Assembly (NCBI RefSeq): GCF_018861905.1
Contig: NZ_JAHLDU010000002.1
Coordinates: 124,001-188,000 of the forward strand
From: Clostridium sp. DSM 17811
GTDB taxonomy: Bacteria; Bacillota; Clostridia; Clostridiales; Clostridiaceae
DNA length: 64,000 nt
Reading direction: 5' to 3'
The number at the start of each line of letters is the position of its first letter. Position 1 is the stretch's first letter. Shown one piece after another: positions 5,283-7,445 of the stretch. Under the pieces are notes generated by a model, which saw only the letters and a program-made list of their open reading frames with translations, was not told the origin of the DNA and made no database searches. Made by a program: the position numbers and the translations under genes.

Positions 5283-5694
5283 AGAGGCGTTTACAAAAGC
5301 AAAAGAGGATGACAAACCTATATTGGTAAGTATCGGTTATTCTTGTTGTCATTGGTGTTATGTTATGGAAAAGGAATCCTTTGAAAATGAAGAAGTAGCA
5401 GCAATACTAAATAGATATTTTATAGCAATAAAGGTTGATAGAGAAGAATGTCCAGATGTAGACAGTATTTATATGTCTGTATGTCAGTCTCTTACCGGTA
5501 GTGGTGGGTGGCCCTTAACAATTTTTATGACCTCAGATAAAAAACCATTTTATGCAGGTACCTATTTTTCAAGGGAAAGCATGCGTGGAATGCCCGGTAT
5601 AAAAGATTTGTTAATTTCTATTGCAGAGCAGTGGAATGAAAATAAAGAGAATATTATAGAATCTAGTCAACTGCCAACTACCCTAAAGGAATAG
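5266..5694 (+). pseudogene. yyaL: yyaL (DUF255 thioredoxin-like) 5' fragment
   Basis: The 142-aa open frame matches the N-terminal thioredoxin-like part of YyaL/DUF255 proteins: EEAFTKAKEDDKPILVSIGY, the CHWC active site, SFENEEVAAILN, DREECPDVD and GGWPLTIF. Full-length members have about 600-700 residues and begin roughly 25 residues earlier (NPVDWYPW before EEAF). Both ends are therefore lost. The left end abuts a TnpB scar and the right end is broken by the IscB element. A second piece of the same family appears at 7446-7502. It is very unlikely to be functional. Confidence 0.8.
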
Positions 5695-5939
5695 TGGCTT
5701 GTAGGAAACTATAAGTTGGTTGAATAGCCTAAGTATTAAATTACTACATTATATAAGAATATATAGTTACCCATGGATACTTCTCTAGTCTGTGACTCTA
5801 AGCTTTAATATTAAATATCTCTGATGGTAGGAGAAGTGTATTAAAGATACAAAACCTTATATAATATTGGCGAAGAGAACTTACCTTAATATAATTATAT
5901 ATTATATTAAGAGTTTAAATTATCTGAAAGGATGTAATA
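5695..5939 (+). ncRNA. candidate omega-RNA upstream of iscB
   Basis: The 245 nt before iscB have no ORF but can fold. GGTTGAATAGCC (5718-5729) forms a hairpin. ATACTTCTC (5777-5785) pairs with GAGAAGTGTAT (5831-5841) with a 2-nt bulge, enclosing a TTTAATATTAAA hairpin. A perfect 11-bp stem ends the region at 5885-5911. IscB guide RNAs are encoded in this position, with the guide at the 5' end taken from sequence flanking the left end. The predicted guide would thus be yyaL sequence just left of about 5700. No covariance search was run. Confidence 0.55.
5885..5911 (+). repeat. perfect inverted repeat before iscB
   Basis: CTTAATATAAT (5885-5895) and its exact complement (5901-5911) with a 5-nt loop, ending 28 nt before the iscB start. 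It could be the 3' terminal hairpin of the omega-RNA or a processing site. Confidence 0.6.
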
Positions 5940-7289
5940 ATGATGGTATATGTAATTAATATTGATGGAAAAGCTTTAATGCCTACATCAAATACAAAAG
6001 CAAGAATATTATTAAAATAAAATAAAGCAGTAGTTAAGGAATTAAAGCCTTTTACTATTCAATTAATATATAAAACTGAAGCAGAATATATTCAAGAAAT
6101 TACGTTAGGAATTGATTCAGGATATAATGATATAGGATTTAGTGCTATAACTAATAAGAAAGAATTAATTGTAGGAGAATTAAAATTACTACAAGGTATA
6201 AAAGAAAGATTATTAGAAAAGTCAAGTTATAGAAAAATAAGACGTTCAAGATTAAGATATAGAAAACCTAGATGGAACAACAGAACTAAATTAAAACCAA
6301 AGAGATGGTTAGCTCCAAGCCTGCAACACAAGTTAGATTCTCATATTAAATTTATTGATAGTTTATATAAAATATTACCAATTACCAAATGTACTGTAGA
6401 AGTAGCAAATTTTGATATTCAAAAGATGAATAGCGATAGTATTAGCGGAGTTGAGTATCAACAAGGTGATATGATGGGGTTTTGGAATTTAAGAGAATAT
6501 ATACTTCATAGAGATAATCATAAATGTCAAAATCCTAATTGCAAGAATAAAGACAAAGAAAAAATATTAGAAGTACATCATATTAAATACAAATCTTTTG
6601 GTGGGGTAGACAATAAGAATAACTTAATAACACTTTGTAACAAGTGCCACACTTCCCCTAACCATAAAAAAGGAGAATTTTTATACGATTGGTGCATGGA
6701 AGGTAAGAAAGTTAGAGGATTTAAAGATGCTACCTTTATGAGTATGATTAGATGGTATTTAATAAACGACTTAAAAGAAAGACATTCCAATATTTATTCA
6801 ACTTATGGATATATAACTAAAAATCACAGGATTGAGAATGGAATTGAGAAAACTTATTATAATGATGCATTTGCAATAACTAAAGGAATTAAGCAAGAAA
6901 GAAACAAAGAAATATTTGAAGTTAAACAATCAAGAAGAAATAACAGAAGCTTAGAAATGTTTTATGATGCAAAATATATTGATAGGAGAAATGGTCAGAA
7001 AATTAGTGGGGGAGATTTAAATAACGGGAGACGAACGAGAAACAAGAATTTAAATGGAGAAAATCTTCATCAATATAGAGGTGAGAAGTTATCAAAAGGG
7101 CAAAGAAGAATAAGAAAAGTTAGGTATTTTTATCAACCTAATGATTTAGTTAAATATGAAGGGAAAGTATATAGTGTCAGAGGAACTCAAAATGGTGGAG
7201 CATACACAAGATTAAATGAAATTAAAAAAGTACCTAGAGTAGATTTATTGACACCTTATAAGTTTAATAAAGGGATAGTGTGGAAATAG
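5940..7289 (+). pseudogene. iscB: IscB RNA-guided nickase/nuclease gene with an in-frame stop
   Basis: 449 codons in one frame with a single TAA at codon 27 (6018-6020). An N-terminal PLMP domain (VYVINIDGKALMPTSNTKAR) precedes RuvC-I (LGIDSGYNDIGF, Asp59) and an Arg-rich bridge helix (YRKIRRSRLRYRKPRW). RuvC-II is VEVANFDIQKM (Glu154). An HNH domain at about 180-245 has zinc CxxC pairs and EVHHI. RuvC-III is YYNDAFAI (Asp309), where the usual His three residues before Asp is Tyr306. The ribosome site GAAAGGATG is good. The stop removes the PLMP domain from downstream product; internal initiation at ATG 6426 would give only 287 aa lacking RuvC-I. The His-to-Tyr change would weaken RuvC in any case. 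Confidence 0.88.
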
Positions 7290-7405
7290 TGAATTATATT
7301 TATTTGAAAAGACAATTTTGGAATGAAAATACGTTTTGGGGAGATGGATATTTTGCTTGTAGTATAGGTCAAGTTTCAAAAGAAACAAATGAAAAATATA
7401 TTTAG
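7289..7405 (+). pseudogene. IS200/IS605 TnpA C-terminal remnant
   Basis: The frame starting at GTG 7289, overlapping the iscB stop, encodes FWNENTFWGDGYFACSIG and then QVSKETNEKYI before TAG, continuing NQG. This is the conserved C-terminus of Y1 (HUH) IS200-type transposases (FW..GYF..S.G..S.ET...YI.NQG). The HUH motif and the upstream two-thirds are absent. It is a scrap of the element's own or a related transposase. Confidence 0.7.
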
Positions 7406-7445
7406 AATCAAGGTTAGAGAAACGCTATTCATCCACTAGCCTAAA

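What the first reader, a model, noticed from the sequence alone, without database searches (positions are those of the whole stretch)
5691..7445. IscB (OMEGA) element inside a yyaL gene, with iscB nearly intact
PLMP, RuvC-I/II/III, bridge helix and HNH are all readable. One nonsense codon (6018-6020) and a RuvC-III His-to-Tyr change separate it from a functional form. IscB is the ancestor-like relative of Cas9, so a reconstructed clostridial version would be informative.
Basis: partly seen in the sequence, partly recalled or inferred. Interest (0 to 1): 0.72.

Follow-up and report, generated by a model that had tools for sequence, protein, structure and literature searches.

The report
Decayed IscB transposon inside yyaL
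This is the damaged remains of a small jumping gene carrying an RNA-guided DNA cutter (IscB, a relative of Cas9) that landed in a bacterial gene called yyaL; it is an ordinary dead copy of a known kind, though undamaged relatives and small RNA-only cousins in related bacteria make its normal workings easier to read.

Summary
Window 5666-7446 is an IS200/IS605-type OMEGA element of a Clostridium: a full-length HEARO/omegaRNA (Rfam 125.7 bits), iscB (NCBIfam guided_IscB, 315 bits for the part after the stop) and a tnpA remnant. Empty sites in three related genomes show that it entered yyaL immediately 5' of GTAAAA. This copy is very likely immobile and inactive; the iscB lesions look recent. Intact sister copies with iscB and tnpA exist. 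In 11 of 11 related elements with a readable right end the flank begins RTAAA, like the published NTAAA TAM of OrufIscB, so the guide would come from the left flank (here yyaL). In passing I found 338-378-bp elements with both ends and a complete omegaRNA but no iscB or tnpA (two in one genome, one in another); those genomes show no close iscB. Known kind; low to moderate interest.

The parts
5266..5665 (+). yyaL (DUF255/Thioredox_DsbH) left fragment
   Evidence: Pfam PF03190 202.8 bits for 5266-5691; 5268-5670 is 91.8% identical to intact yyaL of G006
5646..5665 (+). predicted flank-derived guide of the omegaRNA (20 nt shown; true length unknown); same bases precede GTAAA in the empty yyaL site
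   Evidence: inference from empty sites: 20 of 20 bases match G007, 19 of 20 match G006 and G003
5666..5884 (+). HEARO / omegaRNA incl. left-end hairpin, full length
   Evidence: Rfam RF02033 125.7 bits, model 1-211; consensus fold of 13 sequences, window included
5940..6017 (+). iscB piece 1 (start of PLMP region), 26 aa
   Evidence: Pfam RRXRR 21.6 bits, NCBIfam guided_IscB 22 bits, both below the whole-protein cut-offs
6018..6020 (+). in-frame TAA nonsense codon
   Evidence: sequence; a sense codon in 7 of 7 aligned relatives
6021..7289 (+). iscB piece 2 (RuvC, bridge helix, HNH, C-terminal region) with stop codon
   Evidence: guided_IscB 315.3 bits, cut-off 175; PDB IscB matches
6855..6857 (+). 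RuvC-III codon: Tyr where 7 of 7 aligned relatives have His (OgeuIscB H340)
7290..7405 (+). tnpA (Y1, IS200-like) C-terminal remnant; N-terminal two thirds deleted, stop just after the Tyr motif
   Evidence: Pfam Y1_Tnp 28.4 bits, cut-off 23; NCBIfam transpos_IS200 27.5 bits, below its cut-off 55; alignment with relatives
7430..7446 (+). inner half of the right-end hairpin; outer half lost
   Evidence: comparison with relatives
7439..7446 (+). GCCTAAAG shared by right-end loop and yyaL (CCTAAAG in all 11 right ends, with the leading G in L010): deletion junction
7439..7494 (+). yyaL right fragment
   Evidence: 98.2% identical to G006 yyaL over 56 bases

Best explanation
The feature is a recently dead, immobile copy of an IS200/IS605-type OMEGA transposon (omegaRNA - iscB - tnpA) in a Clostridium. 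Intact relatives most likely work so: TnpA moves the element as single strands between hairpin ends and inserts it next to RTAAA; the omegaRNA starts at the left boundary, so its guide is whatever flank lies to the left; IscB reads the same RTAAA on the right of the empty site as its TAM and cuts sites from which the element has left, so that repair copies the element back. In this copy the guide is yyaL sequence, but iscB has a stop at codon 27 and a changed RuvC-III catalytic residue, tnpA lacks its HUH part, and a deletion between short repeats in the right-end loop and in yyaL removed the right boundary. Shown: anatomy, insertion site, lesions. Inferred: activities of TnpA and IscB, guide use, TAM.
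For: HEARO at 5666-5884. guided_IscB 315.3 bits for piece 2. Empty yyaL site GAATCTA|GTAAAAA in G006, G007 and G003 against GAATCTA|GTCAAC in the window. Empty site AAAT|GTAAAAA in L060 and L061 for the CS001 copy L003; empty site ATATTATAT|ATAAAATACC in L135 and L137 for mini-element L107. The two CS001 copies are 99.6% identical over 2084 bp with sharp ends. RTAAA follows the right end in 11 of 11 elements, 32-35 nt from the loop in 10 and 25 nt in L032; in the same 11 loci an RTAAA starts within a given 4-nt span at 2.7% of positions. OrufIscB has an NTAAA TAM (PMC13180657, passages). tnpA of L003 is complete, 133 aa, 125.5 bits, its ATG overlapping the iscB stop. Window piece 2 differs at 4 of 195 invariant columns, L003 at 4 of 195; pairwise dN/dS window-L003 0.086. 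At E up to 0.001 the genome shows no other RRXRR protein and no other HEARO.
Against: No activity can be shown from sequence. The signature of constraint and the good omegaRNA score fit decay only if the lesions are recent, or an assembly error at the stop; one assembly is held, no reads. dN/dS is pairwise with dS near 0.9, so it says little about the window branch alone. Besides the remnant, 7 other Y1 transposase hits lie in the genome, two of them partial, so transposase in trans is possible, though the right boundary is gone. The L004 site gave no clean empty site in L073 or L074. L032 does not fit the 32-35-nt spacing. The 11 right ends are not independent (two CS001 copies; two G002 mini-elements), and their spacing comes partly from shared descent.
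Confidence: 0.9

Rival explanations
1. The iscB is intact in the living strain and the stop (and perhaps the Tyr) is an assembly or sequencing error.
For: Piece 2 is open over 422 codons and shows no excess of changes at invariant columns (4 of 195, same as L003).
Against: Independent lesions in the same element: tnpA deletion plus stop, right-end and yyaL deletion. The C. tagluense A121 copy is broken too, so decay happens in the group.
Confidence: 0.07
2. Domestication: the immobilised element is kept for its omegaRNA or for a shortened protein (ORF 6426-7289, 287 aa).
For: The omegaRNA scores 125.7 bits against 128.6-150.1 in the ten hits; low pairwise dN/dS.
Against: No HEARO hit in another genus genome lies at a yyaL hit (G013 and G014 have no yyaL match), so the insertion is not shared. 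The 287-aa ORF starts after PLMP, RuvC-I, bridge helix and RuvC-II.
Confidence: 0.03
3. Stop-codon readthrough or reinitiation gives some working IscB.
For: The rest of the frame is open and conserved.
Against: The first ATG/GTG/TTG in frame after the stop is at 6426; the RuvC-III His is lost as well. No readthrough signal was looked for.
Confidence: 0.02

Closest known systems
IscB / HEARO OMEGA systems (OgeuIscB, OrufIscB)
   Same: Domain order PLMP - RuvC-I - bridge helix - RuvC-II - HNH - RuvC-III - C-terminal region; HEARO-family omegaRNA directly upstream; boundary motif like the NTAAA TAM of OrufIscB
   Different: Broken copy; iscB is linked to tnpA, a pairing that PMC9755519 found for 'only a few' HEARO nucleases (passages)
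IS200/IS605 family with Y1 HUH transposase TnpA
   Same: Relative L003 has a complete 133-aa IS200-type tnpA; hairpin-like sequence at both ends (by eye); no target duplication at the empty sites read
   Different: The accessory gene is iscB; the window copy has lost the tnpA HUH part and the outer right end
Non-autonomous IS200/IS605 derivatives (PATE-like; recalled, not searched)
   Same: Mini-elements L106, L107, L108 have both ends and neither iscB nor tnpA
   Different: They keep a full-length omegaRNA

Membership tests
IscB (OMEGA nuclease) | PLMP domain at the N-terminus | tested here: met
   Pieces 1 and 2 match guided_IscB positions 1-24 and 26-312; interrupted by a stop
IscB (OMEGA nuclease) | RuvC split by bridge helix and HNH, with catalytic D, E, H, D | tested here: not met
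   Motifs present, but the H position (OgeuIscB H340) is Tyr; architecture met, catalytic set not
IscB (OMEGA nuclease) | HNH domain | tested here: met
   Pfam HNH 34.9 bits, cut-off 21.4
IscB (OMEGA nuclease) | omegaRNA immediately upstream | tested here: met
   RF02033, 125.7 bits, full length
IscB (OMEGA nuclease) | RNA-guided cleavage next to a TAM | not testable with these tools
   RTAAA at 11 of 11 right boundaries is only circumstantial
IS200/IS605 element | Y1 HUH transposase | tested here: not met
   Window has only a 41-aa C-terminal piece; complete in L003, 125.5 bits
IS200/IS605 element | Hairpin ends, fixed target motif, no target duplication | tested here: inconclusive
   Fits in relatives; the window keeps the left end and the inner half of the right end only

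The most novel reading that the evidence does not exclude
In this Clostridium group omegaRNAs outlive their nuclease: short elements made of two ends and a complete omegaRNA (338-378 bp) jump by transposase in trans and carry their own flank-derived guide, to be used by IscB supplied from elsewhere (another element or a phage), so that guide and nuclease are separate, trans-acting partners. The window copy, with a good omegaRNA and a dead iscB, would be one way such guides become orphaned.
Probability: 0.15. Interest if true: 0.5.

Novelty: new member of a known kind. Interest (0 to 1): 0.25.

Why it matters
The copy itself adds little. Its relatives are more useful: empty sites for three insertions (the window copy, one CS001 copy, one mini-element) show where these elements insert, give a testable TAM prediction (RTAAA), and show that an omegaRNA-bearing element without iscB or tnpA has moved in this genus.

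Tried and rejected
The idea that the frame is not IscB was rejected. A complementing IscB in the same genome was not found: one RRXRR match only, the window's own; the second hit covers the HNH stretch only, 39% identity, with two stops. An empty site for the second CS001 copy (L004) could not be read cleanly in L073 or L074. The 92-aa ORF 7517-7795 beside the element has no Pfam match at E up to 1 and no relative at E up to 0.001 in the 16 other genus genomes; its origin stays open.

Literature: nine searches ran. In their listings (titles and starts of abstracts) I saw nothing on this element in the C. tagluense/estertheticum group (one search is the one that asked) or on omegaRNA elements without a nuclease (asked; their terms 'omegaRNA' and 'omega RNA' may miss papers that print the Greek letter). 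The library lacks three main papers I asked for. So this is no claim of absence from print; as I recall, HEARO RNAs without a neighbouring ORF were noted when the class was described.

Rows dropped: the alignment used the window piece and 7 relatives (L003, L005, L006, L008, L010, L011, L032); left out were L004 and L009 (proteins identical to L003 and L008), L007 (broken) and L033 (not picked up by the script). The right-end tally used 11 elements (L003, L004, L007, L008, L010, L011, L032, L033, L106, L107, L108); L005 and L006 have no recognised right end, L009 was left out as a repeat of L008, the window's right end is lost. Of the 8 further HEARO loci fetched, 3 are the mini-elements; the other 5 have no right end of this type: L105 and L112 (partial match to the L003 element), L109 (no match), L110 (contig end), L111 (distant iscB, 31%). 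The script took the first RTAAA more than 12 nt after the loop, so it would have found a more distant one too; the constant spacing is what counts. The binomial figure assumes independence and is not used.

Full report
What is there. The window lies in contig C2 of a 5.19-Mb draft genome. The element runs from 5666 to 7446: a full-length HEARO/omegaRNA (5666-5884), iscB in two pieces around a TAA (5940-6017 and 6021-7289), and a tnpA remnant (7290-7405).

Is it IscB? Yes. Piece 2 scores 315.3 bits against NCBIfam guided_IscB (cut-off 175) and piece 1 matches the first 24 positions of the same profile. Solved relatives matched include TbaIscB, HfmIscB and OgeuIscB (10 distinct sequences at E up to 0.001). 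In an alignment with 7 relatives, 195 columns are invariant among the relatives and hold a residue in window piece 2; the window differs at 4, among them the RuvC-III His, which is Tyr here. L003, taken the same way, also differs at 4 of 195. By the alignment the residue corresponds to H340 of OgeuIscB, one of the RuvC catalytic residues D61, E193, H340, D343 according to PMC9640706 (passages). Pairwise dN/dS with L003 is 0.086 at dS 0.94. Most of the divergence thus accrued under constraint, and the two iscB lesions are probably recent; this is inference from a pairwise figure.

The host gene. yyaL is open in G006, G007 and G003 (stop-to-stop frames of 695, 703 and 692 codons). All three read GAATCTA-GTAAAAAAATAG where the window reads GAATCTA-GTCAACTGCC, the first bases of the element. 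The left yyaL piece is 91.8% identical to G006 over 403 bases and the right piece, 7439-7494, 98.2% over 56. Between them about 1.1 kb of yyaL is missing. The right junction lies on GCCTAAAG, which is in yyaL; the right-end loops of the relatives hold CCTAAAG (11 of 11), with the leading G in L010. This looks like a deletion between short direct repeats that removed the outer right end together with the yyaL stretch. yyaL has also lost its first codons and everything after 7494, and 7495-7820 has no match in the G006 locus.

The relatives. Two copies in CS001 are 99.6% identical over 2084 bp with sharp ends. They carry an open iscB (448 aa from its ATG) and L003 a complete 133-aa IS200-type tnpA (125.5 bits, cut-off 55) whose ATG overlaps the iscB stop. 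iscB and tnpA both look open in L003, L004, L008, L010 and L011; tnpA is internally shortened in L032, 5'-truncated in L033, and not recognised in L005 and L006; in L009 it was not looked at. The C. tagluense copy is broken in iscB and tnpA. The window's tnpA has lost about 275 bp, which in L003 hold the HIH motif, and has a stop just after the Tyr motif (motif roles recalled).

How it inserts. The L003 site is empty in L060 (G002) and L061 (G012): AAAT-GTAAAAA. A third empty site, for the mini-element L107, reads ATATTATAT-ATAAAATACC in L135 (G012) and L137 (G004); the other five loci printed, L136 and L138-L141, differ by a few bases there. The L004 site could not be read cleanly. In 11 of 11 elements with a readable right end the flank starts with RTAAA, at 32-35 nt from the loop in 10 and at 25 nt in L032; a given 4-nt span in these loci holds an RTAAA start at 2.7% of positions. 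The 11 are partly related by descent. OrufIscB recognises an NTAAA TAM (PMC13180657, passages), and in OgeuIscB the guide is the 5' segment of the omegaRNA (PMC9640706, passages). The simplest reading is that one motif serves both transposase and nuclease: the element lands with a TAM on its right, and the left flank becomes the guide against the empty site. For the window copy the guide would be the yyaL sequence just before 5666, matching the empty site at 20 of 20 bases in G007 and 19 of 20 in G006 and G003 (read). That TnpB nucleases retain transposons in a like way is taken from PMC11870625 (passages) and recalled work; for this IscB it is inference.

The RNA. Thirteen omegaRNAs (window, nine loci with iscB or its remnant, three mini-elements) give a consensus fold of 62 pairs, 30 of them with at least one sequence changed on both sides that keeps the pair (not corrected for relatedness). 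The window copy scores 125.7 bits, below each of the ten HEARO hits (128.6-150.1) and above the mini-element L108 (120.7); the cut-off is 83.

Mini-elements. A HEARO search over 17 genus genomes found matches over the cut-off in 8. Three hits lie in elements with both ends and no match to iscB or tnpA: L106 and L107 in G002 (338 bp each; 96.6% identical over 355 aligned columns) and L108 in G010 (378 bp). Their longest stop-free stretches are 39, 39 and 64 codons. Their omegaRNAs score 133.1, 127.7 and 120.7 bits. G010 has no iscB match; G002 has two distant ones (38% and 30% identity), one of them with a 476-aa open frame and its own HEARO-like RNA of 76.9 bits. These are draft genomes, so a missing iscB is not proved. 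Nearest to the G002 mini-elements is the omegaRNA of G005, 93% identical, beside an intact iscB. They look like deletion derivatives moved by transposase in trans. Whether their RNAs guide any nuclease is open.

Verdict. The finding is real, and it is an ordinary decayed member of a known class.

Noticed in passing
L106 (G002:C18:5107-5444 -), L107 (G002:C6:53274-53611 -), L108 (G010:C155:41335-41712 +): 338-378-bp elements with both ends and a complete HEARO/omegaRNA but no iscB or tnpA, next to RTAAA; an empty site for L107 in G012 and G004. Their genomes show no close iscB.
   Followed up: partly
L018, L023, L028, L029 (G004), L027 (G005), L024 (G012): A second, distant family of 413-aa IscB-like frames (31-32% identity to the window), four in G004; weak HEARO hits below the cut-off lie beside the four in G004 (34-39 bits) and the one in G012 (37 bits).
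   Followed up: no
L105 (G004:C1:1438642-1438858): Strong HEARO (139.6 bits) followed by a short frame that begins like an IscB N-terminus and breaks off (read by eye); no iscB or tnpA match: another omegaRNA without its nuclease.
   Followed up: partly
L008, L009, L010, L011 (IMG/VR contigs): Relatives with open iscB (68-83% identity) lie on contigs classed as viral, so phages may carry these elements; the contigs themselves were not examined.
   Followed up: no
window 7900-8190: Sequence ahead of argS looks like a T-box leader (GGTACCGCGG and a terminator-like stem; recalled motif) although Rfam at gathering threshold listed none there.
   Followed up: no
window 7517-7795: 92-aa ORF between the yyaL remnant and argS, no Pfam match and no relative in 16 other genus genomes.
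   Followed up: partly
window 120-214: NiCo riboswitch (73.9 bits).
   Followed up: no
L032 6863-7072: Group II intron D1-D4-5 hit (160.4 bits) about 0.75 kb downstream of the G005 element.
   Followed up: no
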